This document shows positions 4,049 to 17,673 of a stretch of 64,000 nt of DNA, piece after piece. The DNA is from Portibacter lacus. GTDB lineage: Bacteria; Bacteroidota; Bacteroidia; Chitinophagales; Saprospiraceae. The notes below the pieces were generated by a model. The model ran no database searches and was not told where the DNA came from. It saw only the letters and a list, made by a program, of their open reading frames with translations. Made by a program: the position numbers and the translations under genes. Location: positions 620,001-684,000 of the forward strand of contig NZ_JAJNKA010000001.1 of NCBI RefSeq assembly GCF_021533215.1. Direction: 5' to 3'. Position 1 is the first letter of the stretch. The number at the start of each line of letters is the position of its first letter.

Positions 4049-4603
4049 TTAATCTGTCCAATCTGTAAAATCGTCATTATTCATTCCAGTATCGTCTATG
4101 GCTTGATTATAGCCATCTTGTAATTCGTTAAGTCTGTTTTGTTCAGACTCTGAAAGGTTGTCCTGCTCTAATAAGGCATTAATCTCGTCATTGGCTTCAG
4201 CAATCTCATCCATTACTGCGGCCGCTTCTGAAATAACTTCGGAAGCTGCAGCCTGAGCATCTGAGATCATGCCAGCAATAGCGGATGGGTTCATAGCCCC
4301 TGCTCCGATCATAACTGTAAAACAGCCCATAACTATACTGCCACCATGTATTGTCATATCACCAACTTTGGCTAGGGGAGTTCCATTAACCATCACTTTA
4401 TTCGTTGCACAAGCAGGTGAAATAGAATCTGGCGGGCCTACGCAAGTACACATAGATCCAGAACCTGCTGCTGGTAAGCCACCTATGAGACAAGGTTTAC
4501 CCATGATAGGCATAATAATAGGGCCTCCCACATGCGGAATTGGTGGAACTCCAGGCGTTACCATGGGACATACATGCATATCAGTTAATCGAGCTGCGAA
4601 CAT
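4049..4603 (-). CDS. PAAR-domain spike-tip protein
   Basis: This 184-residue protein begins with a PAAR-type fold rich in Pro, Gly, His and Cys: DMHVCPM near residue 10, then PHVGGPI, CLIGG, MCTC, ATNKVMVNG and GDMTIHGGSIVMG, ending near residue 105. PAAR proteins form the zinc-stabilised sharp tip of type VI secretion and eCIS spikes and often carry or recruit cargo. The C-terminal 75 residues are an acidic, helical tail without a recognisable toxin domain, and could be an adaptor for cargo. It is transcribed leftward ahead of the double-DUF4157 gene and divergently from the ubiquitin-like operon, with 142 bp between the two start codons. No sheath, tube or baseplate gene is inside the window, so the apparatus, if present, must lie further left or elsewhere. 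Confidence 0.85.
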   Translation of the reverse strand: MFAARLTDMHVCPMVTPGVPPIPHVGGPIIMPIMGKPCLIGGLPAAGSGSMCTCVGPPDSISPACATNKVMVNGTPLAKVGDMTIHGGSIVMGCFTVMIGAGAMNPSAIAGMISDAQAAASEVISEAAAVMDEIAEANDEINALLEQDNLSESEQNRLNELQDGYNQAIDDTGMNNDDFTDWTD

Positions 4604-4745: not shown

Positions 4746-6500
4746 ATGTTGAAAATAAAAAACCCTTATCCGGGTTTTCATGACGGAATTCATAGAGCTT
4801 ATGATGTAGACGAATCTTCCCTGTTTTATGGACGAGATCAGGATATTTCTAATATTAAACTTAGATTAAGACAAAACAGATTAGTCGCATTGCTTTCTGC
4901 TAGTAAGGCTGGAAAAACCAGTTTTCTAAGGGCTGGAGTAATGGCTAATTTCGACAAGAACCTATTTAATGGTATCAATGGTCCGCGATGGAAAAGTGTA
5001 TATTTCACACCAGAGCATGATCCTGTTCTGAGTATGGCAAGAGCCATCGTAAATCCAAAATCATTTCTAAGTGAAAAAATTAAACCAAGTATGGAAGAGG
5101 AAGTCCTCCGAAAACTTGAAAAGAACGATTACGGATTAGTTAGAGTTGCAGAAGATATTATAGGAGATCAAGCTTATAATTTACTGATGGTAGTTGATGA
5201 TTTTGCAGATTTATTTACACGAAAAGTAAATAGCAAAAGATGCGATCAATTTGTAAACCTGATTTCGAAGGCTATTAAAACTCCGAATTTAGGTTTCTAT
5301 TGTATTATCTCTATGAATCTAGAAGACCTCTCTCTTAAAAGTTTAAAGGAATACGAGGATTTATATAAGAGCATTATGAAGGGGAATTATCAACTTCGAT
5401 TGCTAGATCAGATGGGCCTCAAAGACGCTATAGAAATTCCAGCAAAAATTGAGAAATCGGAAGTTGATGAGCAGTTAAGCCTGCAACTTATCGAAGAGTT
5501 AATATCAGATGCGGATCAACTTAGGAAGCTTCAGATTTATATGTCTAAAACATGGTTTGAATGGAAAAAAAATCATAAGAACAAAATCATAGATGTTAAT
5601 CATTTTCTTAAAGCCACTGGACAAAGACAGAAAGTCGGATTGCAGAAAAATAGGAAAGGAAGTTCATCTGGGATTAAAATTAAAGGAGAAGGGGATTCAA
5701 CATTTAACCCTCAGACTTCAGGAAACTTAATGACAGGATCGATCGCTGACGATTATGAATCTTTAGATGGAAATCAACAAGGTGTCGTCGCTAGAATTCT
5801 CCAAGTATTACTAAAGCGAGGAGAGTATAATAATGTAGAATCTATTTCTAAAGATTTAGATCTAATGGCTAAAATTGTTAATATTTCTAGCAATGAACTT
5901 ATAAAAATAACGAATGATGTTCCTTCGATATTGAGCATAGAAAGAAAGCAAGTTGTCGTTACGAATACAGAGGCTGTAGGTGAATGGGATAAGAGTATAA
6001 CATTTATAGAAAATGAAGAGGATGCTGTAGAAAACTATAAATCTATTGCTGATGCTTCGATTCTACATTATATAGATGGAATAGATATTGATTCTGTTTA
6101 TAGCAAGGAGCAATACGAAAAAGTGAAAATATGGTATGATGAATATTTGCCTTCTGAAGAATGGGCACTTTTATATCATAAGCAATATGAATTAGCAGTA
6201 GATTTTATAGGAAAACTTGAAACCATGTATGGCCCGGTTTCGGCACCTAAGAAAAAATTGAAACCTTCAGGTCGTAAAGCGCCAATCAAGGTCGGCAAGC
6301 CTGCTATGAAATTGACCATTAAAAAAAATGAAGAAGTTCCAGTAGAAGATTCGGCTCCGGAATTAGATGAAGTGGTAGAAGTTCTTGAAGAAAAAAATAT
6401 AGAACCAAGTCCTGTTACATCTAAAAAAATTATTTTTAAAGGTAAAGGAGGTGAAGAAAATGAGACTGTAAAAAAGAAAATTGTTATAAAGAAAAAATAG
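4746..6500 (+). CDS. nSTAND1-type P-loop ATPase, first gene of the ubiquitin-like operon
   Basis: The 584-residue protein starts with the layout of novel STAND NTPases: NPYPGF, then LFYGRDQDI, then RLVALLSASKAGKTSFLRAG, in which ASKAGKTS (residues 52-59, Lys57) is the Walker A loop. MVVDDFADLF (Asp151, Asp152) is the Walker B strand. STAND ATPases are signalling switches that sense a trigger and oligomerise. The usual C-terminal TPR or WD repeats are missing; instead there is a helical region and a charged tail with GKPAMKLTIKK (6294-6326) and KKKIVIKKK (6471-6497), which resemble tails of the E2 and JAB proteins downstream. An in-frame TTG at 4725 would add seven residues; the ATG at 4746 is preferred because it sits just before the conserved NPYPGF. 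The gene is 76 bp ahead of the E1 gene. A role as sensor or scaffold is inferred. Confidence 0.8.
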   Translation: MLKIKNPYPGFHDGIHRAYDVDESSLFYGRDQDISNIKLRLRQNRLVALLSASKAGKTSFLRAGVMANFDKNLFNGINGPRWKSVYFTPEHDPVLSMARAIVNPKSFLSEKIKPSMEEEVLRKLEKNDYGLVRVAEDIIGDQAYNLLMVVDDFADLFTRKVNSKRCDQFVNLISKAIKTPNLGFYCIISMNLEDLSLKSLKEYEDLYKSIMKGNYQLRLLDQMGLKDAIEIPAKIEKSEVDEQLSLQLIEELISDADQLRKLQIYMSKTWFEWKKNHKNKIIDVNHFLKATGQRQKVGLQKNRKGSSSGIKIKGEGDSTFNPQTSGNLMTGSIADDYESLDGNQQGVVARILQVLLKRGEYNNVESISKDLDLMAKIVNISSNELIKITNDVPSILSIERKQVVVTNTEAVGEWDKSITFIENEEDAVENYKSIADASILHYIDGIDIDSVYSKEQYEKVKIWYDEYLPSEEWALLYHKQYELAVDFIGKLETMYGPVSAPKKKLKPSGRKAPIKVGKPAMKLTIKKNEEVPVEDSAPELDEVVEVLEEKNIEPSPVTSKKIIFKGKGGEENETVKKKIVIKKK

Positions 6501-6576
6501 AATTCTAAATAAATTACTAGTTTAGGGTTCTTCAAATGCACATTTGTGATTCATTTTAAAAAACCAAAAAATAAAG

Positions 6577-7803
6577 ATGGGAGACAAACCTAAAAAGTCC
6601 CAAAAATTAAAGTTAGAAAATACTGGTGGGCAAAAAGAACACTGGGATGATACTTTTAGACTTATGTCATGGTGGGATGCAGATAGAGTAAAGGATGCCA
6701 AAGTGATGGTGGTAGGTGCAGGTGCGCTTGGGAATGAGGTATTGAAAAACTTAGCTTTAATGAATGTCGGGTCTATCTTTATTGTAGATTTTGATACGAT
6801 AGAATATGCTAATCTTTGTAGATCTGTTCTGTTTCGGACGGAAGATATCAACAAGAATAGATTCAAATGTGAAATTGCTGGAGATCGAATTAAAGATATT
6901 AATCCAAATGTTAAAGTCCAAACTATTAACGGTGATATAATGATCGATGTAGGGCTTGGAGTTATGCGAAGAATGGATGTGATTATCGGTTGCCTGGATA
7001 ATAGAATTGCTAGGTTGTTTATTAATCGATACGCCTATAAAGTTGGGAAAGTATGGATAGATGGAGCAATTGAGAATTTATCAGGACAGCTGAATGTGTA
7101 TAAAAATGGGAAGAGTTGCTACGAATGTGCATTAACGAATGTAGACTGGGAGAATATTAGATTCAAGATGGGATGTGCAGATATTGCACAAAGAAATTCT
7201 ACGCAAGGTAGAGTGCCTACTACACCTATTTCCTCTTCTATTATTGCTGCCATGCAAGTTCAGGAAGCTATCAAGGTTATTCATGGGAATGAGAAACAGT
7301 CGATGGCAGGAGAACAGTTCAAATATGACGGAATGAATAACTGGATTATTCAATTTCAATCAGAACCAGTAAGAGAAGAATGTGATAGTCATTATGAGAT
7401 AAAAGAAGAGGAGTTAACGCATGCGAAAGAGCTTCGGAGTGATATGAAAATCGGTGATTGTCTTACTTGGCTGGAGAAACACTTTGACGATAAAGAAATA
7501 AGTATTCAATTAAATTATAAGATCATTCTGGAAATTGCATCGATGAATTCTGAAATTTCACATGACATTGTGATTCCAGAACCACATTTTTCAGATCACA
7601 TGCAGACGCCTTATCAGAAGGAGCCAGGCGAGCCGATAGGAATTACGAAATATGTGGATATGATCGATAAGGATTTTCCAAACTTAGAAATGACATTAAA
7701 AGAGGTAGGAATTCCGCCTCTTCATATTCTAACAGTGGAAACAAGCGAGGATACTTATTTTGTAGAATTAACAGGAGATGAATCGTTTTTAAATTTTAAA
7801 TAA
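6577..7803 (+). CDS. E1-like ubiquitin-activating enzyme (ThiF/MoeB/UBA fold)
   Basis: This is a 408-residue adenylating enzyme. Its Rossmann loop is VVGAGALG (residues 45-52); the ATP-binding acidic pair lies in DFD (71-73), followed by Arg82, Asn94/Arg95 and Lys97, and Asp141 in GCLDNR. The family adenylates the C-terminal glycine of a ubiquitin-like protein and may pass it to a cysteine. Cys200 (KMGCAD), 13 residues before the PTTPISSS-AAMQVQEAIK helix, matches the position of the ThiF catalytic cysteine. The zinc site appears to be Cys181/Cys184 (CYEC) with Cys279/His282 (CDSH), so one usual cysteine is replaced by histidine. About 125 further residues at the C-terminus could bind the E2 or the Ubl. 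It sits directly before the Ubl and E2 genes (48 and 53 bp gaps), which makes them its likely partners. Confidence 0.93.
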   Translation: MGDKPKKSQKLKLENTGGQKEHWDDTFRLMSWWDADRVKDAKVMVVGAGALGNEVLKNLALMNVGSIFIVDFDTIEYANLCRSVLFRTEDINKNRFKCEIAGDRIKDINPNVKVQTINGDIMIDVGLGVMRRMDVIIGCLDNRIARLFINRYAYKVGKVWIDGAIENLSGQLNVYKNGKSCYECALTNVDWENIRFKMGCADIAQRNSTQGRVPTTPISSSIIAAMQVQEAIKVIHGNEKQSMAGEQFKYDGMNNWIIQFQSEPVREECDSHYEIKEEELTHAKELRSDMKIGDCLTWLEKHFDDKEISIQLNYKIILEIASMNSEISHDIVIPEPHFSDHMQTPYQKEPGEPIGITKYVDMIDKDFPNLEMTLKEVGIPPLHILTVETSEDTYFVELTGDESFLNFK

Positions 7804-7851
7804 ATATATTTATCAAAAAACCTTATTTAAGCATACAAAACCAATCAAATT

Positions 7852-8136
7852 ATGTCTAACTCGGAAGTAATGGGAATAGTCGTTAGGGTAATGCCTAGCG
7901 GAGATGAATTAGAAGTAGAATTGCCCATCTATTCTACTGGAAAAGAGATTAAAGAGGAGCTTCTAGCAGCTGAAGTAGCTCCAAGAGTGGATCCAGAAGG
8001 AAACCCTTATGTTTATGATCTAATATTTAAAAGGAAGAATGTATCTATAGGCGATAGCAAAACCTTATTTGACCTACAAATTCAAGAAGGGGATACACTA
8101 TATCTAGCACCTCGTTTAGTACCAGGAGGTAAGTAG
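7852..8136 (+). CDS. Ubiquitin-like beta-grasp protein ending in Gly-Gly-Lys
   Basis: The 94-residue product has the alternation expected of a beta-grasp fold: a hairpin (GIVVRVMPSGDELEVELP), a helix (TGKEIKEELLAAE), a strand (VYDLIFKRKN) and a final strand (DTLYLAPRLVP). Its C-terminus is Gly92-Gly93-Lys94. Ubiquitin-like modifiers are activated at a terminal diglycine, so the single extra lysine probably has to be removed first, most likely by the JAB peptidase encoded two genes downstream. The start ATG follows the E1 stop by 48 bp and the E2 gene begins 53 bp later. YukD/EsaB-like proteins share the fold, but the diglycine end and the E1-E2-JAB neighbours make a conjugated modifier much more likely. 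Confidence 0.88.
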   Translation: MSNSEVMGIVVRVMPSGDELEVELPIYSTGKEIKEELLAAEVAPRVDPEGNPYVYDLIFKRKNVSIGDSKTLFDLQIQEGDTLYLAPRLVPGGK

Positions 8137-8189
8137 TTATTTATATTCGGCTATTGCGTTGAATCATTTTTTACTTTAAATTAAGGATC

Positions 8190-8996
8190 ATGTCCAGCAA
8201 ACCAACATATGATTTTAAATCGGATTTTTTTAAGAAGAATCCCTTTTATAAAAGATTAGCGAAAGATCACCTTTCACTTTTTGAAATAGAAAGTGACGTC
8301 GTCAAATGGGAGGTTGTTAATACTAGAGGTGCCTTAAAAATTCCTTGTGAGTACCATTTTCATTTCTATATCAAAAGTATAGTAGGTACAAATCCGGATT
8401 TGTCGCCAGTTTTTGGAAAACATCACATTGCGAAGGTCACCTTCCCTCCAAAGTACCCTATAGAACCGCCAGAACTTTATATGCAGACTGATTTATGGCA
8501 TCCGAACATAAAATCAGAAGGTAAGTATAAAGGCAGAATATGCGGAAATACGAAAGGATTTGGGTTAGGGTATGATCTATACTTATTAGTCATTAGAATT
8601 GGTGAAATATTACAATTTAAGCAATACCATTCAGAGAATACACCTCCATTTCCAGAGGATATCAAGGCTGCAAGATGGGTCTTAGAATATGCTGAACCTA
8701 ATGGAATAGTAAACAAGTATAAAGATATAGCAATCGATGATACGCCACTGGTTAATATAGACTATTCGAAAGATAGAAAACCAGCAGACAATGAACCTAT
8801 TAAGGAAGAACCGCCGAGAATAAAATCTGTCGATGTTGCTCCAAGAAAAGTGGAAACTAAAATAATCGAGGAACCAGTCATAAGTGAAAAAGAGAACAAA
8901 AAGCCAGATGCTATTCCAGGCAAAATGAAAATAAATATTGTAGCGAAAAAAGCTGCAGGAAAAAAGAAAATTGTGATCCAGAAAAAGAACAAGTAG
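8190..8996 (+). CDS. E2-like ubiquitin-conjugating enzyme (UBC fold) with Lys-rich tail
   Basis: Residues about 15-165 form a UBC fold. The Pro-rich turn FPPKYPIEPPEL (86-95 region) is followed by HPN (104-106), the motif whose Asn supports catalysis in E2 enzymes, and by GRICGN with the likely thioester cysteine Cys118. A helix with hydrophobic periodicity (LYLLVIRIGEIL) and a TPPFPEDIKAARW segment follow as in eukaryotic E2s. The spacing from HPN to Cys is a few residues longer than in typical E2s because of a KSEGKYKG insertion. Residues 167-268 are a disordered, charged tail ending in GKMKINIVAKKAAGKKKI (8919-8969) and VIQKK; similar segments occur in the nSTAND and JAB proteins. It would take the Ubl from the upstream E1 and hand it to targets, either alone or with the RING-like protein encoded two genes downstream. 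Confidence 0.92.
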   Translation: MSSKPTYDFKSDFFKKNPFYKRLAKDHLSLFEIESDVVKWEVVNTRGALKIPCEYHFHFYIKSIVGTNPDLSPVFGKHHIAKVTFPPKYPIEPPELYMQTDLWHPNIKSEGKYKGRICGNTKGFGLGYDLYLLVIRIGEILQFKQYHSENTPPFPEDIKAARWVLEYAEPNGIVNKYKDIAIDDTPLVNIDYSKDRKPADNEPIKEEPPRIKSVDVAPRKVETKIIEEPVISEKENKKPDAIPGKMKINIVAKKAAGKKKIVIQKKNK

Positions 8997-9027
8997 TGCT
9001 TATTCCCAAAGTCCAAATTATCAATTG

Positions 9028-11307
9028 ATGAACATCAAAAAGTCTATTACTTTATTAGCATGTATGCTATTCTCGCAGATTTTGGTATATAGCCAGGATC
9101 AAGTAAGAATCATGGATGCTGCAGATGAATCGGCAGGAAGATTTAAGACTCAGCTCTATTTATTAGAAGATGGTCGCTTAGTTAAATTAAAAGGAAATGC
9201 TCCTCAAATAATTGCAAAAGGTGACCAAGCAGAATTAGTTCTCCGCATTAAAGATTTAAGATGGTTCGAAGACAAGGAGATTTCAAATGCTGTGGAAATA
9301 GATCGCTCAGATATAGAGCTAAGTGATACCAGAGGAATGCAAATTGCATCATCGCCCACCAGTTATGTTTTAGAACCTAAACCGGATTCTGAAGCAGATA
9401 TCAAATTTCGAGTCTTAAAAAATGGTCAGTTTTCATTAATAATTCCATTTACAGCAGGAAAATTAGAAGGCCAATATGTGCAGATCTTCGAAATGGAAGG
9501 TGTGTCGGGGGCTAGTAGTAATAACGCTCCGATAGGTGCTATAGCAGACCTAAAAAAAGAATGGAAGGAAATCGATAAAAAAGATGAAGATGCAGTTCAG
9601 AGTTTTATTAATAAATATGAAAACAATGAAATAGCAATAGAGGAAAGACTTATTGCTGTTGCGGAAAGAACCTTAATGCGAATCCAGAAGAGGGAAGTTA
9701 TAGATGAAGAGAAAGAGGAAGCGTTATGGGAAGCAATAGGAGATAGTAAAGATCCCGATTTATTAAACGATTTTTTAGAGCAATTTCCTGATTCTAAATA
9801 TGCTGAAGCTGCTAAGGCTAAGTTAGGACTTGATGCTGATGTGTTAATAACATCCGGTAATGAAAGTCGTAGAATGAATAATACCTTAACCAAAGCTGAT
9901 GATAATATCTTTCACTTGGATTTATCTCACTTAGGTGAAGTTGAAATTAAGGTTTCTCACCCTGATGAAATAGAAATCTTTAAAAACGGGGGAAACTTAT
10001 TTGACCTAAAGGTTAAAGGAAGCAAGAAATATGAGATTAATGTATTAGAAGTTAAAACTGGAGACAAGTTTGATTTTGACCTTGATAATAGATTTGAAGC
10101 AAAATTAGACCGTAACGGAAAAGATTTTATTCTGACAGTTCAAGGTGGTGTTTCTCCTTATACTATTGAGTTTTATAAAGATGATGAAGAAACGTCATTG
10201 TTAGAGGCAAGATTCGAAGGGCTTAATCCGAATGCAGTTGGAGAAATATCTGTAGATAATCAAATGTTAAGTGCTTCAGGAATGGATGGTACATATACGA
10301 AACTAACTATTCGTGACTTTACGACACAAGCAGTCTCTACGTTTCCTATCGATGTTACAGTGACTCCGAAAAGATTTTCTAGTAATTTAATTATCGGCTT
10401 ACTGCTTGGTGGATTAATTATAGGAGGGGTAGTTATGTATCTTTATAATAAAAGGAAAAAGAGTACCCAAAAGGCATATCGGGAAAAGGCGAAAGTATTT
10501 CAGCAAACTCAAAAATTCCAACAAATCGCTACACCTGAGCCAGTTGCGAAAGAACCGAAAGTAGTTAAAGCTGCACAGAAAATGCCTAAAAAAATAACGA
10601 TTACAAAACCTGTGAAAAAATTTGTTCCCGCTAATGGTGGAAGCAACACATTTGTATCTTCAGGAAAAATGAAGATAACAAAACGGGAAGCTAAAGGCGG
10701 TAGACTTTCTGGTGAGGAATTTAGAGAGGTGCTTAAGAATGGGAAGTATGCGTTTTTGGATCTAAATGAACTGTGGCCTGATTCTGCAATAAAAGAGTTA
10801 TACCTAAGTAATGAATGTATCAAAGCTTTAGGTAAATTTCTAAAAGAAGAAAATCTAGATAAGGTCGTTACGGAGATGGAAGGAGCAATTCCTGAAGTAG
10901 GTGGTTTTCTAATGGGATATCATCAGTTAAATGAATCTGGACATATTCGAGTGACAATGGATGAGTTCGTTCCATTTGTACCGGAATATCATGATGTATT
11001 TAAAATTGAAATAGGTACTGCTACTCTTGTGCAAGAGTTAGGAGATGCACAAGATACACACCCTGATAAAGATGTAATAGGTTGGTTTCACACACACCCA
11101 GGTCATGGATTATTTCTTTCTAATTCTGATTTATCTGTACAGCGTCATTTTCCATTAAAATATCAGATTGCGATGGAGATTGATAGTTTGACAGAAACAT
11201 TAGACACTGCGTTTTTTACGAGAAAAGAGGATGGGACTATAAATAATGTAGAACATAGAAAGAAAGGAGCTAACTGGTTTAGTTGGAAAAAAATCGAAAA
11301 TATTTAG
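9028..11307 (+). CDS. Membrane-anchored JAB/JAMM deubiquitinase-like peptidase
   Basis: This 759-residue protein has an N-terminal signal peptide (ITLLACMLFSQILVYSQ), a large predicted periplasmic region of beta and helical character (about 25-450), one transmembrane segment (IIGLLLGGLIIGGVVMYLY, about 456-474), a basic linker, and a C-terminal JAB/MPN domain (about 570-759). The JAMM zinc motif is complete: Glu623 (PEVGGFLMG), then HTHP with His688 and His690, Ser698 and Asp701. JAB enzymes cleave after diglycine, so it could both trim the Ubl's terminal lysine and remove conjugated Ubl. Given the signal peptide and single later segment, the JAB domain faces the cytoplasm. The linker carries KKITITKPVKK (10588-10620) and GKMKITKREAK (10663-10695), related to tails in the nSTAND and E2 proteins. 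A TTG at 9025 directly abuts the chosen ATG. Confidence 0.9.
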   Translation: MNIKKSITLLACMLFSQILVYSQDQVRIMDAADESAGRFKTQLYLLEDGRLVKLKGNAPQIIAKGDQAELVLRIKDLRWFEDKEISNAVEIDRSDIELSDTRGMQIASSPTSYVLEPKPDSEADIKFRVLKNGQFSLIIPFTAGKLEGQYVQIFEMEGVSGASSNNAPIGAIADLKKEWKEIDKKDEDAVQSFINKYENNEIAIEERLIAVAERTLMRIQKREVIDEEKEEALWEAIGDSKDPDLLNDFLEQFPDSKYAEAAKAKLGLDADVLITSGNESRRMNNTLTKADDNIFHLDLSHLGEVEIKVSHPDEIEIFKNGGNLFDLKVKGSKKYEINVLEVKTGDKFDFDLDNRFEAKLDRNGKDFILTVQGGVSPYTIEFYKDDEETSLLEARFEGLNPNAVGEISVDNQMLSASGMDGTYTKLTIRDFTTQAVSTFPIDVTVTPKRFSSNLIIGLLLGGLIIGGVVMYLYNKRKKSTQKAYREKAKVFQQTQKFQQIATPEPVAKEPKVVKAAQKMPKKITITKPVKKFVPANGGSNTFVSSGKMKITKREAKGGRLSGEEFREVLKNGKYAFLDLNELWPDSAIKELYLSNECIKALGKFLKEENLDKVVTEMEGAIPEVGGFLMGYHQLNESGHIRVTMDEFVPFVPEYHDVFKIEIGTATLVQELGDAQDTHPDKDVIGWFHTHPGHGLFLSNSDLSVQRHFPLKYQIAMEIDSLTETLDTAFFTRKEDGTINNVEHRKKGANWFSWKKIENI

Positions 11308-11323
11308 GCATTTCAGAAAGCAT

Positions 11324-13672
11324 ATGAAAATAAGAAACATCTTTCCAACACTTTTTTTGCTGATCTTAATAAGTTTAAGTTCTTATGCACAAGAAGAGGA
11401 ACAAAGTGTAGAGCGTGCACAAATACTATCAGTTAATATTAATCAAGAAACAAATACGGTAGATGCCACGGTTCTAGCACCTAAAATTAACAATGCCGTA
11501 TTCAATAGTACTACAGCTAAGTTTTCCGAACTAATCGATGGAAAGCGATATCCGATGAAATTTTTTCGTTTCGAAGAAATAGGAGGTCAAAATCAAGAAG
11601 TATATTCCATTTTGTTTGTCCTTGACTGGAGTGGAAGTATGAGAGAAGAGCAAAGATTGGTAAAGGCTAAGAAAGCTATTTTTAATACGATTCAGAGTAT
11701 TTCACTACCTCCAGGATCAAAGTTTTATTTAACTGCGTTTCATGATGATATCTTTGAAAATGTAGAAGTTAATAAAAGTAATATTGAAGCGGAGCTTGAA
11801 AAGTATTATGTTCCACTACCGAGACAAGGAAAAGGAACTGATTTATATCGAGCGACTATAGTAAAGACCCAGGAAATGCAGAATTTCGAGGGGAATAAAA
11901 TTATCCTCTTACTTTCTGATGGGGAGAATGATTTAATGATGAACCAGCATTACAAGAATACTGGAACAACTCCTCCTACACCCGCTGATGTATTCAATGT
12001 TGTTAGTGAGGAGGATGCAAAAAGTAATCTGGCATTTTACCCTATCGGATTAGGTAGTCGCGCGGATACCACATTTCTAAAAAGACTTCCGGAATTAACT
12101 CAGAACTCAAAAGATAGATACATCTATTCAGAAAGTCCTGATGATTTATTAAATATCTTTTTAACAGTAATAGCGCAGTATTCTGTGACTTACAGGGTTA
12201 AGTTGATTCCATCTAGGGAAAAAGAAGTTTTCAAAGGAGAGAGTAGAGAATTACAACTTGATTGGCAAGCTAAAGGTTTACCTACAGCCATGTTAGCATT
12301 TTACGATTATGCTGGTGGATCATTTATAGAACCCATTAACTTGGGAATTAGTCAAAGTACTTATACCACTACGTTTTGGTTGATATATATGTTGATCGGA
12401 GCAGGGATAGTAGGCGCACTATTAGCATTGTTAATGTACATGGTTCCATGGTTAAAGAAAAGGGAATTTAAGACTAAATATGTAATTCCTTATGTTCCTG
12501 AAAAAAATAAAATAAGAAGAGATCCTATTACGCAGGATGCTTTCGAAGAAGGAGATGATGTTGTTGTTAAATGTAAGCAAATGACGTCTTTAGAGACTTG
12601 GAATGCACTTGGACATTGTCCGAATTATCCTAACTGTATGGAATTTGCAGATCCATGTAATGGTTCTGGTGGGGAAGATATTCAAAGCAATTTCTTTTCT
12701 CAGCAAGGTGTATTTAGGGTGCTGAACTGGCTTTGGTTTGGAGCAACAGGAGGATTTGCTGCGTGGGTGCTATATGCTATAGTCCAAATAGTTAATGTGA
12801 ATTGGCTATACAATTGGACTTCGTCCTATTTCAATTCTGAAGAAATGACTGCTCGGCTTCTCGAATTAAGAGGAGGAGAATCATTCTTAAAGAATATTCC
12901 AGAAATGGTAGACCAAACATTGATCGGTTTATTCATAGGTGTGTGTTTAATAATAGCCATAGCTGTAGTGGAAGAAAGAGGACACTCTAGAAAATTTTCA
13001 TTTTGGAGAATATTTATAAGAGGAACGGTAGGTGTCTTTGTTTCCTTTTTAGTATTCTTTTCAGGATATATTTTTCAATATTTAGTATTGCCACAACCAT
13101 TTTTAGCAGGGATAATAATCTGGGCTATTTTTGGAGTAGCTTTCGGAGCAATATTGTCCCTAAATTCAACTGTAGAAGCGAAAAAAGGTATAATAGGTGG
13201 TGTGATTTCATCCTTAGCTTCTTACTTAATTTATTATGGAATAAGCTACATTACTCCGGACGACGTGTTAGCAAAACTATTAAGTTTTATAGCGCTAGGT
13301 GGAGTACTAGGTGCACTGATAGTAACTGTACTTTCGAATCTAGAAGATTTCGAATTAATATATCTTTCTCCTCAGGAGTATACTGGAATGAAGAAGCCAA
13401 TTAGTAAGTGGTTAAAAAAGGGAATGGAAATTTATATTGGTAGATCTTCTAAGTGCTATGTTTTTGTCAAATGGGAAGACGAGTATGTTGATGATCGGCA
13501 TGCTAAATTAATATACCAAGGTGGAAGTGTTCATATTATACCTTTGTTTGAAACAATGGTTAATGGAGTTATAGTCCCCGAAAATCAGAAAACTGCATTG
13601 CAAGGCGATGATATTATCCAACTAGGACGGTATAGTATTTCTAGAATGCAGTATAAAGAAAAAAGAAGTTAG
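11324..13672 (+). CDS. VWA - RING-like - FHA membrane protein (candidate E3)
   Basis: The 782-residue protein has a signal peptide (FLLILISLSSYAQ) and a periplasmic VWA domain with a good metal site (DWSGS at 101-105, GTDLY, LLLSDGEND). After a transmembrane segment (about 352-377), residues 400-446 read RDPITQDAFEEGDDVVV then Cys417, His431-Cys432, Cys438 and Cys445: the spacing of a RING or treble-clef zinc domain whose first cysteine pair is replaced. About six more membrane segments (roughly 466-680) precede a C-terminal FHA domain (IGRSSK at 705-710, DDRHAK with Arg725-His726, VNG), which binds phosphothreonine peptides. RING-like domains bring E2 enzymes to substrates, so an E3 role responding to a periplasmic ligand and phosphorylated targets is a reasonable inference. 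It lies 16 bp after the JAB gene and 2 bp before the channel gene. Confidence 0.85.
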   Translation: MKIRNIFPTLFLLILISLSSYAQEEEQSVERAQILSVNINQETNTVDATVLAPKINNAVFNSTTAKFSELIDGKRYPMKFFRFEEIGGQNQEVYSILFVLDWSGSMREEQRLVKAKKAIFNTIQSISLPPGSKFYLTAFHDDIFENVEVNKSNIEAELEKYYVPLPRQGKGTDLYRATIVKTQEMQNFEGNKIILLLSDGENDLMMNQHYKNTGTTPPTPADVFNVVSEEDAKSNLAFYPIGLGSRADTTFLKRLPELTQNSKDRYIYSESPDDLLNIFLTVIAQYSVTYRVKLIPSREKEVFKGESRELQLDWQAKGLPTAMLAFYDYAGGSFIEPINLGISQSTYTTTFWLIYMLIGAGIVGALLALLMYMVPWLKKREFKTKYVIPYVPEKNKIRRDPITQDAFEEGDDVVVKCKQMTSLETWNALGHCPNYPNCMEFADPCNGSGGEDIQSNFFSQQGVFRVLNWLWFGATGGFAAWVLYAIVQIVNVNWLYNWTSSYFNSEEMTARLLELRGGESFLKNIPEMVDQTLIGLFIGVCLIIAIAVVEERGHSRKFSFWRIFIRGTVGVFVSFLVFFSGYIFQYLVLPQPFLAGIIIWAIFGVAFGAILSLNSTVEAKKGIIGGVISSLASYLIYYGISYITPDDVLAKLLSFIALGGVLGALIVTVLSNLEDFELIYLSPQEYTGMKKPISKWLKKGMEIYIGRSSKCYVFVKWEDEYVDDRHAKLIYQGGSVHIIPLFETMVNGVIVPENQKTALQGDDIIQLGRYSISRMQYKEKRS

Positions 13673-13674
13673 CA

Positions 13675-14580
13675 ATGGGATTCAAACAACAAGTCTTCAG
13701 ACTTATAGATGAAGACAACCAGGCAGGATTAAAAATAAATGATAGGATCGGTTCAGTCATCATGTTGCTGATCGTGTTAAGTATTGTGGCTGTTGTTGTA
13801 CAATCGGAAGAATCTATTAATGAACAGTATTTTGATGTCTTTTTTTGGTTCGAAGTAATAGCTGTCGGTATTTTTACTATAGAGTACTTGGCTAGAGTAT
13901 ATACAGCTAGTTTAGCTTATCCTGAGTTAAGCAGAGGTAGAGCGATACTTAAGTATATCTTTTCTCCGATGGCTATAGTTGATTTTTTAGCCATCATGCC
14001 TTTTTATGTAGAGTTGGCAGCAAGCCATTTTGGATTAATAGGTGTATTAGATTTAAGATTCATAAGGGTTCTGAGGTTGATGAGATTATTGAGAATCTTT
14101 AAGTTGAATAGATATAATAGCTCCATGAAATTGATTGGAGATGTGATGAAAGAAGAGAAAGAGAAACTATTTATAACAGTCTTTATGACTGCTATTCTAT
14201 TAGTCCTAGCAGCGGCATTAGTTTTCACAGTGGAGCATGAAGCTCAGCCGGAAAGTTTTCCCAATATATATGCTTCTATGTGGTGGGCCATAGCGACACT
14301 TACGACGGTTGGTTATGGAGATGTCTACCCGTCTACTGCTATGGGGAAAATCCTTGCAGGTGTTATTGCATTATTAGGTATAGGACTTGTAGCATTACCT
14401 ACTGGTATTTTGTCAGGATCGTTTGTACAGGCAATCAATGAAGAAAAAGAGAAAAGAATAGAAGAAAGATCTGCTGAAATTGCTGCGGAAGTTGCTGAGG
14501 AAGCTATTCAAAACCATGAAGAAGAATTCGAACACATCACAATATGTCCTCATTGTGGTAAAGATATTCAAGAACATTAA
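13675..14580 (+). CDS. Voltage-gated potassium channel subunit with C-terminal CPHC knuckle
   Basis: The 301-residue protein has the six-helix Kv layout: S1 near 25-45, S2 and S3 to about 110, an S4 with periodic arginines (RFIRVLRLMRLLRIFKL), S5, a pore helix and the selectivity filter TTVGYGD (210-216), then S6. The C-terminal cytoplasmic end is a charged coiled coil (about 250-285) finished by ICPHCGKDI, half of a zinc ribbon that could pair in a tetramer or bind another protein. It would pass K+ and change membrane potential. The start codon follows the VWA-FHA stop by 2 bp and the stop overlaps the next start (TAATG), so it is firmly within the ubiquitin-like operon. Conjugation of Ubl to the Lys/Glu-rich tail would be an obvious control, but that is speculation. 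Confidence 0.93.
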   Translation: MGFKQQVFRLIDEDNQAGLKINDRIGSVIMLLIVLSIVAVVVQSEESINEQYFDVFFWFEVIAVGIFTIEYLARVYTASLAYPELSRGRAILKYIFSPMAIVDFLAIMPFYVELAASHFGLIGVLDLRFIRVLRLMRLLRIFKLNRYNSSMKLIGDVMKEEKEKLFITVFMTAILLVLAAALVFTVEHEAQPESFPNIYASMWWAIATLTTVGYGDVYPSTAMGKILAGVIALLGIGLVALPTGILSGSFVQAINEEKEKRIEERSAEIAAEVAEEAIQNHEEEFEHITICPHCGKDIQEH

Positions 14581-16070
14581 TGGAAGAAGAGTCTCAGGAA
14601 AGGAAAAATATTTTCAAGACTTGGCTAGAAACTTTACAACAGGAAAGTTGGCAACTAGAGCTTCTTATTTCAGGTCTAGCACTTTTTGGAATTTTTGAAG
14701 CAAAAGTTCTTTTAGATTCTTTAGAGTCTTATATCAGCATTCAATTTTTAAGAGGATCAGCACTTTTAGCTGTGAATATTTTTGTATTCCTGTTAAAGGG
14801 TAGTTGGTATATCTTCCTTATCAATCTGTTAATTCATATTGTATTAAGAGGTCTCTGGATCGGAGCTATTGGATTGCGATATGTTTCCCAAGATATTAAT
14901 TATGATGAATTAAGGTTCTCGGCCTATTTCAAAAAATTATACACTAGAAGATACGAATCTTTTGATGATTATATAGAAGACCTTGAAAAGCTTTGTAGTG
15001 TTATATTTGCTTATACTTTTCTTCTATTTTTTATATTGATTTCGGCTTGTTTGTTTGTTGTTTGGCCGGTTGTGTTTTTGTCTTTTTTAGGAGAGCAAAT
15101 TGGGGCATTGTTGGCATTGATCTACGTTCTCTTAGGAATGATTGTTTTTATTGATTTTATCTTCCTTAATCCATTCAAAAGAATGGAAGATAAATGGTTT
15201 TCCATAGTATATGGATTTATTTTTCGGGTATTCAGTACGATTACGCTCTCCTTTATCTTTAGACCATTACTACTTAACTTCCTAGATAATAAATTTACAA
15301 GAAAATTATTCTTGTTTTCTATTCCTTATGGCATTATCATAATTATCATATTGCCACAGTTGAGTGGAGAGACTATTTCCTATATTCCTAGTTTTAAAAA
15401 TGAAAGTTTGAAATCACTAGCTTATAGTGAACATTCTATTAACCCCTACCTTTATGACGATCTTAGACCAGAGGGTAATGAAACGATTAATAGTTTTAGC
15501 ATGAAGTCATTTCATGTTGATGGATCTATATTGGAGTTTTTTGTAAGACATATAAAAAAAGATGAAAACTACTTTAATGAGATAATGAATTATTCAAAAT
15601 TAAATAGGACAGGGATTAATTCAATATTCAGGAAACGAAATAGTGAAGATTCAGTCTACATGGAAATGATGGATACCATGAAATCGCAAATTCATAATTT
15701 TATTATCGCAAAGAAGAAAAATGAAAATAATAAATCTGAGCAGTACTGGGATAATGAGAATAATTCTTTAACGATGTCCCAAGACTCTATGCGTAGAGAA
15801 TACTATGCTGATAGGATTCGAGAGATAAATCAAGCTTTCGAAAAAATGAACAAGTATTTTATAGATGAACAGGAGGTAACAGAAGAAGTTTCTTGTCTTT
15901 TATCCTCACACTCTAATCTGGGAGAAAAGGGTTGGAATTGTTTCGTGAATATTGATTCATTACAAAATGGTGTCCATAAATTTAGGCTAGAAAGAGGATT
16001 GTATAATAGAACAAATAAGACCATAAGTAAGATGGTATTAGAAATTCCTTTTATATTAGATAAAAATTAA
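14580..16070 (+). CDS. Orphan polytopic membrane protein in the ubiquitin-like operon
   Basis: I do not recognise this 496-residue protein. The first 265 residues hold about six to seven hydrophobic segments, among them ELLISGLALFGIFEAKVLL, FLINLLIHIVLRGLWIGAIG, LALIYVLLGMIVFIDFIFL and YGIIIIIILP. The remaining 230 residues are hydrophilic, helical and end in a beta-like segment with two cysteines (EEVSCLLSS and NCFVNIDS) that could form a disulfide if periplasmic. Its ATG overlaps the TAA of the K+ channel gene by one base, a sign of translational coupling, so it probably works with the channel or the other membrane parts of the operon. The region between residues 95 and 135 is soluble and charged. 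Confidence 0.75.
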   Translation: MEEESQERKNIFKTWLETLQQESWQLELLISGLALFGIFEAKVLLDSLESYISIQFLRGSALLAVNIFVFLLKGSWYIFLINLLIHIVLRGLWIGAIGLRYVSQDINYDELRFSAYFKKLYTRRYESFDDYIEDLEKLCSVIFAYTFLLFFILISACLFVVWPVVFLSFLGEQIGALLALIYVLLGMIVFIDFIFLNPFKRMEDKWFSIVYGFIFRVFSTITLSFIFRPLLLNFLDNKFTRKLFLFSIPYGIIIIIILPQLSGETISYIPSFKNESLKSLAYSEHSINPYLYDDLRPEGNETINSFSMKSFHVDGSILEFFVRHIKKDENYFNEIMNYSKLNRTGINSIFRKRNSEDSVYMEMMDTMKSQIHNFIIAKKKNENNKSEQYWDNENNSLTMSQDSMRREYYADRIREINQAFEKMNKYFIDEQEVTEEVSCLLSSHSNLGEKGWNCFVNIDSLQNGVHKFRLERGLYNRTNKTISKMVLEIPFILDKN

Positions 16071-16085
16071 CTTAAATAAATTATT

Positions 16086-16610
16086 ATGACGCCTCCTGTA
16101 AAGTATGGATTGTTCTTCTTCTTGGTATCTTCAGGTATCACTTTAGTCCAATTTTTAGTAGCCAAAGAATCAATGTTTAGCCCAGTTCTGGGAATGGTCT
16201 TAAGTATTGGGCTTTCTATTTTGTTTATTGTTCTATCCATTAGAGCAGATAGAGATAATGAGCCTGGTTATACAATGGCAGAAGGAATTAAGGCAGGAAT
16301 GATAACTTATGGTATTGGGACATTGCTATCAATGGCATTTATGTATGTGTTAGCGAATTTTATTGATCCATCTTTAGGAGATACAGCTATAGAGTTAAGT
16401 AAGGAGATTGCAGCTAAAACAGCAGAAACGGTAGCTAATTTTGGTGGATTAGATGAAGCCCAAAAAGCTGAAATGCTTTCAGAAATGGAAAACCAAGAAA
16501 TCCCGAATCCTTTTTCTATTGTCCAGCTAGGTATTGGATGGGTTGTTAGTCTTATTTTTCCAGGCTTAATCATCTCATTGATAGCAGCAGCTATTATGAA
16601 AAAGAACTAA
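16086..16610 (+). CDS. DUF4199 family membrane protein
   Basis: The 174-residue protein has four predicted membrane helices: two at the start (GLFFFLVSSGITLVQFLVA and GMVLSIGLSILFIVLSI), one after the conserved-looking YTMAEGIKAGMITYGIGT, and one near the C-terminus (LIFPGLIISLIAAAIMKK). A charged helix (about 95-140) separates helices three and four. This layout and the short motif after helix two fit DUF4199, a Bacteroidota family of unknown function. It follows the orphan membrane gene by 15 bp and is the last gene before a strong terminator, so it is probably co-transcribed with the ubiquitin-like operon, although DUF4199 genes also occur in unrelated settings. The assignment is from memory of the family pattern. 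Confidence 0.75.
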   Translation: MTPPVKYGLFFFLVSSGITLVQFLVAKESMFSPVLGMVLSIGLSILFIVLSIRADRDNEPGYTMAEGIKAGMITYGIGTLLSMAFMYVLANFIDPSLGDTAIELSKEIAAKTAETVANFGGLDEAQKAEMLSEMENQEIPNPFSIVQLGIGWVVSLIFPGLIISLIAAAIMKKN

Positions 16611-16630
16611 ATATAAAAAAATATAAAAAA

Positions 16631-16660
16631 AAGGCTGCTTTACAGATGTAGAGCAGCCTT
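16631..16660. terminator. Bidirectional intrinsic terminator
   Basis: A perfect 9-bp stem (AAGGCTGCT at 16631-16639 with AGCAGCCTT at 16652-16660) closes a 12-base loop, with an A-run on the left and a T-run on the right. It can stop both the rightward ubiquitin-like operon and the leftward TerB-like gene that ends at 16666. Confidence 0.9.
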
Positions 16661-16665
16661 TTTTA

Positions 16666-17673
16666 TTATTGGTATCTTTTCTTTTTAAAACTAATCATAC
16701 AGCGTTCCGCTTCATCTCGATCTAACTCCATTCCGTCAGCCAATTCGAATAAATCTTCTCTAGAAGTTTCCTCCGTTATTGCTTGCTCTAAACAATATTT
16801 TTTAGCTAATATCTCTAATTTCTCCTTTCGGTGATCAGGTAAACCAAAGATTTCACCATAAGTATTTAAAATTCTAACTTCAGAAGCATCGACATCATAA
16901 TCAGCTAAGGCCATTGCCCAACCTAATAGGTATACGGTCTCTTTAACATTGCTACTTAGTTCTTCAGCTTCGATCCTAGATACCTGATCTTTATTTTGAA
17001 TTTCTTGAATACTTCCAAATCTTGCAGGTATAATTTCAGTAAGCATTTCTCTTTCTTCAGGAGTAATCTTACCATCGGCATCAGCGATTGCAACTAAAAA
17101 ACGCGATAAGATTTCTTGTTCATAACCATTTTCTACAGGATTATTATTTACGATGTTTTCGTATTCAGAATCTGATTCTTCACTTCCTCCTCTACGATCT
17201 CGTCTTCTATCTGAGCCGCGTCCTCTATCTCTGTCACGATCTCTATCTCTGCCTCTTCTTTCCTCTCTTTGCGGACGTTCTCTAACTACTCGGTCCGTTT
17301 TTCTAGTTTCAAAATTTCTGGAAACACGGTTGAAAGCTTTAACGATTGCTTCTTCTTTGTCTGCTGTTGTGAAGTTAGCCTCATTAGACGTTCCGACACT
17401 ACTTAGTGCTGATCTTGCTACTTTAGAACCTATTCGTCCAGCCGTTCCACCTAACATTGACCTAATTAATCTATTTGTTTGCCTACGAGCATTTCTCTTA
17501 ACAACTTTGGTCACTTGTTGTTGAACCGCATTCCCTATGGTTTTAGTTGCAGAAATTAAATTAGAAGCTTCATATATTTCTCCGTTAGGAGTTTGAAAAG
17601 TGCAATGAATTTGTTTTCCATCTATCTGATAGTCAACTAAATATTGCTCTATATCAGGATAAGAATATTTCAT
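16666..17673 (-). CDS. TerB-like protein with Arg/Asp repeat linker
   Basis: The 335-residue protein has an N-terminal basic domain (about 1-110) with RRQTNRLIRSMLGGTAG, a low-complexity linker around residues 128-160 made of alternating RD units plus RGRGSDRRRDRR, and a C-terminal TerB-like helical domain (about 183-320) with the typical acidic start (AIADADGKITPEEREML) and a second half (AMALADYDVDASEVRIL). TerB domains are metal-binding helical modules often joined to membrane stress or signalling proteins. No signal peptide is seen, so it is cytoplasmic. It converges on the ubiquitin-like operon but has its own promoter region to the right. A role in that system is possible but unsupported. 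Confidence 0.75.
   Translation of the reverse strand: MKYSYPDIEQYLVDYQIDGKQIHCTFQTPNGEIYEASNLISATKTIGNAVQQQVTKVVKRNARRQTNRLIRSMLGGTAGRIGSKVARSALSSVGTSNEANFTTADKEEAIVKAFNRVSRNFETRKTDRVVRERPQREERRGRDRDRDRDRGRGSDRRRDRRGGSEESDSEYENIVNNNPVENGYEQEILSRFLVAIADADGKITPEEREMLTEIIPARFGSIQEIQNKDQVSRIEAEELSSNVKETVYLLGWAMALADYDVDASEVRILNTYGEIFGLPDHRKEKLEILAKKYCLEQAITEETSREDLFELADGMELDRDEAERCMISFKKKRYQ

What the first reader, a model, noticed from the sequence alone, without database searches (positions are those of the whole stretch)
4746..16610. A complete ubiquitin-like conjugation operon placed at the membrane, with an nSTAND ATPase, a RING-like/VWA/FHA protein and a K+ channel
The sequence shows E1 (GAGALG, Cys200), Ubl (ends GGK), E2 (HPN...Cys118) and JAB (E...HxHP...S..D) in consecutive genes, followed without a terminator by a VWA/RING-like/FHA membrane protein, a Kv channel, an orphan membrane protein and DUF4199. 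Known bacterial systems of this kind (the Bil defence operons and the E1-E2-JAB clusters described by Aravind and colleagues) hold the enzyme parts, but I know of none that also encode an ion channel, an nSTAND ATPase and an FHA/VWA membrane protein. A working model: the nSTAND protein or VWA domain senses a trigger, Ubl is conjugated near the membrane, and the channel changes membrane potential. Defence, injection-system control and envelope signalling are all possible.
Basis: partly seen in the sequence, partly recalled or inferred. Interest (0 to 1): 0.95.

Follow-up and report, generated by a model that had tools for sequence, protein, structure and literature searches.

The report
Ubiquitin-like system serving an injection machine
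A marine bacterium carries a complete ubiquitin-like tagging system in its inner membrane, and the tail fibre of its own phage-tail-like injection machine ends in the same short tail as the tagging enzymes, which suggests that tagging docks or controls the machine.

Summary
In detail: 4746-16610 is one operon (nSTAND, E1, Ubl, E2, membrane JAB, VWA/RING-like/FHA membrane protein, Kv channel, two membrane proteins). E1, Ubl and E2 are in 14 of 14 loci compared; the RING-like/FHA protein in all 11 that reach far enough, its VWA part recognised in 6. nSTAND, Kv and TerB are lineage-specific, the last two genes genus-specific. Among 194 genomes of the family, this E2 and one CIS type co-occur (10 of 16 E2+ genomes, 14 of 178 others); in 7 of the 10 they share a contig within 60 kb. 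E2, nSTAND, most large JABs and some RING-like/FHA proteins share a basic strand-like motif (IxIxKK) with that CIS's tail fibre. The fibre ends in it in 8 of 10 E2+ genomes and 0 of 14 others (one clade, so one origin). The fibre's start resembles Cis13, which anchors a cyanobacterial CIS in a membrane by its C-terminus. Best reading: Ubl conjugation at the inner membrane docks or arms this CIS. Binding and function are untested, and the operon also occurs without this CIS.

The parts
4746..6500 (+). nSTAND ATPase; C-terminal tail KIVIKKK at 6477-6497
   Evidence: PF20703 1.4e-34; tail motif in 6 of 6 nSTAND homologues of the 14 loci; coordinates
6577..7803 (+). E1 (single adenylation domain plus C-terminal domain aa ~275-408); catalytic Cys200
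   Evidence: PF00899; profile nearer to eukaryotic UBA1/UBA7 (1e-29) than MoeB (9e-22); model's best hits UBA3
7852..8136 (+). YukD-like ubiquitin-like protein, acidic (net -6), ends LVPGGK
   Evidence: PF08817 1.4e-5, below its cut-off; 14-row alignment; charge
8190..8996 (+). E2, HPN...Cys118; low-conservation tail ending KIVIQKKNK at 8967-8993
   Evidence: PF00179; tail motif 13 of 13
9028..11307 (+). Membrane JAB/JAMM isopeptidase: signal-like start, TM aa 454-472, basic linker with KKITITK (10588-10608) and GKMKITKR (10663-10686), C-terminal JAB
   Evidence: PF01398; TM by hydropathy; JAMM 18 of 18; motifs
11324..13672 (+). Signal-like start, VWA, TM, RING-like loop, further TMs (about seven hydrophobic segments in all), C-terminal FHA: candidate membrane E3
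   Evidence: PF13519, PF00498; hydropathy only
12458..12709 (+). RING/U-box-like segment (aa 379-462)
   Evidence: Foldseek ranks 1-16 all RING E3 domains or RING fusions/complexes, best E 0.027, none <= 0.001
13675..14580 (+). Voltage-gated K+ channel (TVGYGD), lineage-specific accessory
   Evidence: PF00520 6.9e-35; 6 of 13 neighbourhoods
14580..16070 (+). 496-aa membrane protein, found only in the genus
   Evidence: no significant Pfam family; 2 of 14 loci
16086..16610 (+). DUF4199 membrane protein, found here only in the genus
   Evidence: PF13858; 2 of 14 loci
16627..16664 (+). Terminator-like stem after the operon
   Evidence: 17 pairs, T-rich tail
16666..17673 (-). TerB-domain protein; lies inside the operon between nSTAND and E1 in L018 and L019
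   Evidence: PF05099 6.3e-8
4049..4603 (-). PAAR protein, divergent from nSTAND
   Evidence: PF05488 1.5e-10
3..3836 (-). eCIS_core (DUF4157) protein, probable CIS cargo, cut by the window edge
   Evidence: PF13699 1.6e-48

Best explanation
The operon encodes a complete ubiquitin-like conjugation cascade held at the inner membrane, which in this lineage serves a phage-tail-like contractile injection system (CIS) encoded next to it. JAB trims the Ubl to its terminal glycine; E1 (Cys200) activates it and passes it to E2 (Cys118); the RING-like domain of the FHA membrane protein acts as E3 and, where the exported VWA domain is present, receives an envelope signal through it; membrane JAB reverses the mark. 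E2, nSTAND, most large JABs, sometimes the E3, and a CIS tail fibre (a Cis13-like protein, here called F6) carry the same basic strand-like motif (I-x-[IVF]-x-[KR]-[KR]), at the C-terminus except in JAB. It most likely binds one shared partner, best guess the acidic Ubl, as a SUMO-interacting motif binds SUMO. The fibre tails would then dock the CIS baseplate on Ubl-marked membrane sites, tethering, arming or releasing the machine. Shown by sequence: the gene set, catalytic residues, membrane segments, the link with this CIS type, the shared tail. Inferred: enzyme activity, E3 role, what the motif binds, docking, and the signal.
For: Complete CIS upstream in the same genome: AAA, CIS_TMP, spike, four tubes, sheath, gp25-like. 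Family sample of 194 genomes: fibre F6 in 10 of 16 genomes with canonical E2 against 14 of 178 others (p 6e-7, phylogeny ignored); 7 of the 10 on one contig. G768: PAAR, then the E1 ORF 4 bp later, Ubl, E2, a TM protein, then the CIS AAA gene, one strand. G707: operon, all CIS genes of the window's genome, PAAR and nSTAND on a 75.9-kb contig with Rep3 and ParA. L021: a CIS_TMP ORF 38 bp after the FHA-protein gene. Fibre tail motif 8 of 10 E2+ against 0 of 14 E2- genomes, 0 of 8 if only intact full-length frames count; background 3 of 182 ORFs. F6 aa 1-37 match Anabaena Cis13 (All3316, 2e-5), its middle a fibre protein (bd2133, 7.7e-12); Cis13's C-terminal TM helix anchors that CIS, and without it 9 of 14 CISs were free-floating (PMC8894136 passages). 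In G435 the fibre motif (IRINPR) has no lysine, which favours a binding motif over an acceptor site. Ubls net -3 to -9, E2 tails +2 to +10.
Against: Tail-bearing fibres form one clade in a 17-row tree (G707, G768, G659 not in it): one origin, so p-values overstate, and G000-G002 are one genus. The canonical E2 also occurs without this CIS type (6 of 16 in the family sample) and in genomes with no CIS_TMP hit (3 of 14; 4 of 8 in the order sample); association with CIS_TMP in general is weak (4 of 8 against 46 of 240, p 0.055). Three operon-bearing genomes (G441, G442, G444) have another CIS type; no ORF in the CIS stretches read there carries the motif, G441's contig being only 10 kb. G578 has operon and CIS 7 kb apart but no fibre tail. 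Tails are degenerate in G440 and G768, absent in G659. The motif was found in none of 6 small JABs and 9 of 12 large ones, and in 6 of 15 complete RING-like/FHA proteins. VWA recognised in 6 of 11. RING support is fold-level only. Motif binding was not tested.
Confidence: 0.5

Rival explanations
1. The CIS fibre or baseplate is itself the conjugation substrate: the shared tail docks E2 or Ubl, and the Ubl is attached to the fibre to block or permit assembly or release of particles, much as Bil is reported to attach its Ubl to a phage tail fibre (recalled, not read here).
For: The tail sits on the fibre; enzymes and deconjugase are encoded beside the CIS.
Against: Fibre motif without lysine in G435; JAB and the E3 candidate are membrane proteins by hydropathy, which a purely particle-modifying system would not need.
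Confidence: 0.2
2. An anti-phage defence operon of the Bil/Bub/CBASS kind that merely travels with the CIS in one clade.
For: nSTAND ATPases and E1-E2-JAB sets occur in defence systems (established knowledge); the ThiF part of the E1 matches PADLOC E1-E2 models (best 1.6e-15); the E2 is also found without this CIS.
Against: Of the ten proteins scanned against PADLOC only the E1 has a clear match; nSTAND, JAB and TerB have one weak hit each (0.008-0.009), the other six none at 0.01. Repeated linkage with the CIS in different arrangements and the shared fibre tail.
Confidence: 0.1
3. One reading: an envelope-signalling or death system whose output is the K+ channel, with the CIS incidental.
For: Kv directly follows the FHA-protein gene in 6 of 13 neighbourhoods.
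Against: Absent at that place in the other 7; the core persists without it.
Confidence: 0.1
4. The shared tail is only lysine-rich disorder and the linkage only island co-inheritance.
For: Single clade of tail-bearing fibres; tails are basic; the pattern was set on the E2s.
Against: The I-x-I register at the very end in 13 of 13 E2s and 6 of 6 nSTANDs against 3 of 182 background ORFs; lysine not needed; the linkers before it are poorly alignable while the end is kept.
Confidence: 0.1

Closest known systems
Prokaryotic Ubl-E1-E2-JAB operons, rows 6a-6e of Iyer, Burroughs and Aravind 2006 (PMC1779556; passages read)
   Same: Separate Ubl, E1, E2, JAB genes in one operon (as row 6d)
   Different: Row 6d E2s lack the classical histidine; here HPN is invariant. 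No membrane E3 candidate, FHA/VWA or CIS link in the passages read
Prokaryotic RING and YukD-Ubl systems, Burroughs 2011 (not held; content recalled; cited in PMC7159879)
   Same: YukD-like Ubl, E1 with C-terminal domain, classical E2, RING, JAB (recalled)
   Different: Could not be compared; no CIS link recalled
Bil (BilABCD), from PMC11354881 passages
   Same: Ubl trimmed by JAB, E1 thioester, E2
   Different: BilA has two Ubl domains, BilD two adenylation domains, BilB a CEHH motif; here one Ubl domain, one adenylation domain and HPN...C
Thylakoid-anchored CIS of Anabaena and its fibre Cis13 (PMC8894136; passages)
   Same: CIS fibre with related N-terminal segment; its C-terminus is the link to a membrane
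   Different: Cis13 uses its own TM helix; here the tail carries the Ubl-system motif
CisA of Streptomyces CIS (PMC12237407; passages)
   Same: Membrane factor proposed to recruit a cytoplasmic CIS for firing
   Different: Single bitopic protein, no Ubl chemistry
AlgoCIS (PMC8894135) and T6SSiv with Aasi_0556 (PMC12210884); passages
   Same: Related CISs; cage and fibre sites discussed as places of membrane attachment
   Different: No Ubl operon in the passages read; a term search of PMC12210884 found no 'ubiquitin'

Membership tests
Ubl conjugation system (E1-E2-JAB) | E1 adenylation site and catalytic Cys | tested here: met
   G-x-G-A-L-G and Cys200 invariant in 14 of 14 rows
Ubl conjugation system (E1-E2-JAB) | E2 HPN and Cys | tested here: met
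   13 of 13 rows
Ubl conjugation system (E1-E2-JAB) | JAMM metal site | tested here: met
   18 of 18 JAB ORFs
Ubl conjugation system (E1-E2-JAB) | Covalent conjugation of the Ubl | not testable with these tools
   needs biochemistry
Bil | Tandem two-domain Ubl | tested here: not met
   single 90-97 aa Ubl
Bil | E1 with inactive and active adenylation domains | tested here: not met
   one ThiF domain in 408 aa
Bil | E2 CEHH motif | tested here: not met
   HPN...C instead
Row 6d operons (Iyer 2006) | E2 lacking the classical histidine | tested here: not met
   His104 invariant in 13 of 13
RING E3 | Treble-clef RING fold | tested here: inconclusive
   top 16 Foldseek hits RING E3s, best E 0.027, pLDDT 72; sequence profile found none
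RING E3 | Two zinc sites | tested here: not met
   DP[ILVY]T in place of the first CxxC; three invariant Cys
Type VII secretion YukD/EsaB | YukD with EssC/WXG100 partners | tested here: not met
   none among the 30 window proteins scanned with Pfam; YukD match below cut-off
Contractile injection system (neighbouring locus) | Sheath, tube, spike, TMP, AAA | tested here: met
Kv channel (13675-14580) | Ion_trans domain and TVGYGD filter | tested here: met

The most novel reading that the evidence does not exclude
A bacterial ubiquitin-like system whose job is to place and fire a phage-tail-derived injection machine: a membrane E3, deconjugase and Ubl form docking sites, and SUMO-interaction-like tails on the CIS fibres read the Ubl mark. 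This would be Ubl signalling used to position a bacterial nanomachine, with its own Ubl-binding motif.
Probability: 0.4. Interest if true: 0.95.

Novelty: new variant of a known kind. Interest (0 to 1): 0.85.

Why it matters
The bacterial Ubl systems I know of are read as phage defence or have no known purpose. Here the genome itself names a client: a contractile injection system encoded beside the operon, whose tail fibre ends in the same peptide as the enzymes. If the tails bind the Ubl, this gives a bacterial counterpart of SUMO and its interaction motif, a candidate membrane RING-like E3, and an answer to how a free-floating CIS can be brought to a membrane and fired. The record named Portibacter marinus strain 10MBP4-2-1 (L013, G002) carries both loci on one contig, so the question can be tested.

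Tried and rejected
Rejected: the operon as a Bil or row-6d member (defining features not met); the Kv channel, nSTAND and last two genes as core parts; a general link with all CISs (CIS_TMP 4 of 8 against 46 of 240, p 0.055). A first tally put the L015 genome's CIS on another contig; (G744) showed both on C253, so I use the family sample. A first reading of All3316 as crown protein Cis19 was corrected to Cis13. Hits of the motif pattern in TerB, one TM protein end and four Ubl ends look accidental (structured ends or TM edges). NCBIfam added mainly ThiF-type matches.

Led nowhere: sequence search of the RING-like segment against the PDB (best E 0.028, unrelated WD40-type proteins); the plasmid collection (two ThiF relatives, 39% and 32%); the VIA-align library was absent. 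One PDB hit of the fibre profile, a designed repeat protein (8erw, 3.7e-8), I take as chance from repeats. Papers by Gong 2025, Ye 2026 and Burroughs 2011 are not held, so an earlier description there cannot be excluded.
Full report
OBSERVATION. The nine genes from 4746 to 16610 are real, in one direction, with gaps of -1 to 76 bp. A 17-pair terminator-like stem follows the last (16627-16664), though the number of such stems in the region, 8, is no more than in shuffles, 7.2. Pfam confirms each named domain. The E1 keeps its nucleotide site and Cys200 in 14 of 14 rows; the E2 keeps HPN and Cys118 in 13 of 13; all 18 JAB ORFs keep the JAMM motif. The Ubl is YukD-like; its invariant end is one glycine, followed by 0-5 residues, and 4 of 14 end at it (the L016 row starts without ATG). 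The E1 profile is nearer to eukaryotic UBA1/UBA7 (1e-29) than to MoeB (9e-22); its predicted structure finds UBA3 first, with alignments that run the whole length but at rmsd 13 and TM-score 0.43, so a UFD-like C-terminal domain is likely, not shown.

MEMBRANE PLACEMENT. The JAB protein has a signal-like start, one TM (aa 454-472), a basic linker and a C-terminal JAB. The FHA protein has a signal-like start, a TM at 353-371, a loop with the RING-like segment, further TMs and a C-terminal FHA. Six TMs pass the first threshold and seven a lower one; seven put RING-like loop and FHA in the cytosol, six would put the FHA outside, so this topology is tentative. The RING-like segment is conserved in 11 of 11 rows, lacks the first zinc pair, folds at pLDDT 72, and its 16 best Foldseek hits are all RING E3 structures, none significant alone. 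A RING/U-box-like E3 is likely, not proven.

CONSERVATION. A scan of named genomes gave 15 loci; two (L026, L027) were only distant ThiF and were dropped. With the window that makes 14 loci. E1, Ubl and E2 are in 14 of 14. The FHA-protein gene is in 11 of 14; of the other three, L020 and L022 end with their contigs and L019 with the fetched stretch. In three of the 11 (L016, L023, L025) the protein is about 170 aa shorter, and the VWA part is recognised by BLASTP in 6 of 11. Related exported TM proteins, one of them with JAB, lie between E2 and the FHA protein, often with a second small JAB. nSTAND is in 6 of 14, TerB 5, Kv 4, the 496-aa protein and DUF4199 2. Five more neighbourhoods (G563, G516, G578, G640, G707) have the FHA-protein gene; G768 does not show it in the stretch read. 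The Kv gene is also in G563 and G707.

THE PARTNER OUTSIDE THE WINDOW. In the window's genome a complete CIS lies upstream at contig C11:563585-588111 (AAA, CIS_TMP, two large baseplate-like proteins, a 301-aa fibre F6, gp25-like, spike, LysM-like, four tubes, sheath), then an M23 peptidase, large ORFs, PAAR and the operon (Pfam confirmed AAA, CIS_TMP, spike, one tube, sheath and M23; the other names rest on size, order and recall). CIS_TMP is in 11 of 14 operon-bearing genomes, but in a sample of 248 genomes of the order the general link is weak (4 of 8 canonical-E2 genomes against 46 of 240; p 0.055), whereas the link with the F6-type CIS is strong (4 of 8 against 7 of 240; p 1.4e-4). There I counted E2 matches at E <= 6.4e-59 (8; four weaker ones left out) and F6 matches at E <= 1.7e-14 (11 of the 25 genomes with any match; the rest are short). 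Because many loci had been picked by their E1, I repeated it on 194 genomes of the family drawn by the tool: F6 (E <= 1e-10) in 24, canonical E2 (E < 1e-40) in 16, both in 10, F6 in 14 of the other 178 (p 6e-7). One weak E2 match (G745, 1.3e-6) was counted as without. E2 stands in for the operon there; I read the operon itself in only some of these genomes. These p-values ignore phylogeny.

LINKAGE. In 7 of the 10 genomes with both, E2 and F6 are on one contig 21-57 kb apart (G000, G001, G002 of one genus, G707, G719, G744, G768); in G007, G563 and G659 they are on different contigs. The arrangements differ: divergent with about 7 kb between in G578 and G707; a CIS_TMP ORF 38 bp after the FHA-protein gene in L021; in G768 PAAR, then E1 after 4 bp, Ubl, E2, a TM protein and the CIS AAA gene, all on one strand. 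G707's contig of 75.9 kb also has Rep3, ParA and KilA-N genes, so it is probably a plasmid (no terminal repeat seen), and holds operon, CIS, PAAR and nSTAND.

THE SHARED TAIL. Thirteen of 13 E2s end, after a poorly alignable linker, in a motif I-x-[IVF]-x-[KR]-[KR] (pattern [ILVM]x[IVF]x[KRP][KR] in the last 14 residues); L016's E2 fits too. In the family sample some divergent E2s do not fit it (G721, G768, G661, G640). Six of 6 nSTANDs and 4 of 10 complete RING-like/FHA proteins end alike, with 2 more of 5 (G516, G578). A looser pattern is in 9 of 12 large JAB linkers and in none of 6 small JABs. Background: 3 of 182 other ORFs (the pattern was set on the E2s). The CIS fibre F6 ends the same way: in the family sample in 8 of 10 E2+ genomes and 0 of 14 others (p 6e-5). 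Of those 14, six are not clean: a stop in the matched frame in G628, G746, G785 and G759, a part in G537, only the start matched in G709; with the other eight alone it is 8 of 10 against 0 of 8 (p 0.001). In G768 fibre and E2 tails are both degenerate (RSISIKTK and KKISFKNN); G659 has no tail. Three more tailless fibres of the phylum sample (G126, G319, G130; a fourth, G396, matches only at its start) lie in genomes where the E2 profile A1 found nothing. Against this: tail-bearing fibres are one clade in a 17-row tree, so the gain happened once as far as seen; G578 has no tail, G440 a degenerate one. In G435 the fibre tail IRINPR has no lysine.

WHAT THE FIBRE IS. F6 aa 1-37 match the start of Anabaena All3316 (2e-5) and its middle bd2133 of Bdellovibrio (7.7e-12), which I recall as a trimeric fibre. 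All3316 is Cis13: trimers on the baseplate whose C-terminal helix enters the thylakoid membrane; truncation left 9 of 14 CISs free-floating (PMC8894136, passages). So in a related fibre the C-terminus is the membrane link. Here it carries the motif of a membrane-held Ubl system instead. The PHROGs search gave only a weak tail-fibre match (3.7e-5), Pfam none.

MECHANISM. I propose that the tails bind the acidic Ubl (net -3 to -9; E2 tails +2 to +10) by strand addition, like a SUMO-interacting motif with reversed charge, so that Ubl conjugated near the RING-like/FHA protein gathers E2, nSTAND, JAB and the CIS baseplate. VWA, where present, would sense the envelope, FHA a phosphorylated partner, nSTAND would gate by ATP. 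Only the sequence facts are shown. That the partner is the Ubl rather than E1 or another protein is a guess.

LIMITS. The E2 exists without this CIS (6 of 16 in the family sample; G497, G516, G531, G640 in the order sample without CIS_TMP), so the operon must have another or an older use there. In G441, G442 and G444 the CIS is of another type and shows no tail in the stretches read. Fibre and CIS lie outside the 64-kb window.

NOVELTY. Searches for papers joining CIS with Ubl systems listed none (CC-licensed full text only, lists capped at 10-25 papers). The eCIS survey PMC8213781 has one mention of 'ubiquitin' and none of JAB, ThiF or FHA in its main text. Iyer 2006 (passages) describes Ubl-E1-E2-JAB operons, and a Ubl with JAB in phage tail clusters, a suggestive parallel; the eLife 2020 paper PMC7159879 (passages) describes other Ubl-RING operons in conflict systems. 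Burroughs 2011, Gong 2025 and Ye 2026 could not be read.

Noticed in passing
window 34758-37280: TssR-like protein (PF17643, PF20782, PF20780), recalled as a marker of Bacteroidota T6SSiii, followed by an ABC transporter ATPase and an FtsX-like permease; no link to the operon was looked for.
   Followed up: no
G000:C11:599573-623836 (upstream of and into the window start): Very large ORFs (1750, 2940, 2887 aa) between the CIS and the operon; the last carries the eCIS_core domain at the window start: probable CIS cargo.
   Followed up: no
G000:C11:588422-589864; homologues near the operon in L015, G563, G707, G440: M23 peptidase (with Csd3_N2 domain in G000) recurs near the operon or between operon and CIS; may open the wall for release or firing.
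   Followed up: partly
L179:2718-4391 (-) (G768): 557-aa protein beside PAAR-E1 with several copies of the tail motif, possibly an nSTAND remnant; no Pfam match.
   Followed up: partly
L185:8983-12460 (Crinalium epipsammum plasmid pCRI9333.03): Cyanobacterial operon of ThiF, two small ORFs, E2 and Mov34/MPN JAB, next to a conjugative transfer gene; no CIS or VWA gene annotated on the stretch.
   Followed up: no
window about 14540-14577: The Kv channel ends in a CPHCG zinc-ribbon-like tail, also in L013, L015 and G707.
   Followed up: no
window 19930-24984 and 30487-32550: Surface proteins with type IX secretion sorting domain, the first 1684 aa with SprB and PKD repeats; the 1764-aa ORF at 25191-30485 between them was not scanned.
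   Followed up: no
G563:C16:43371-45427: In G563 a PAAR and an M23 peptidase gene, not nSTAND, lie directly beside the E1, while its CIS is on another contig.
   Followed up: partly
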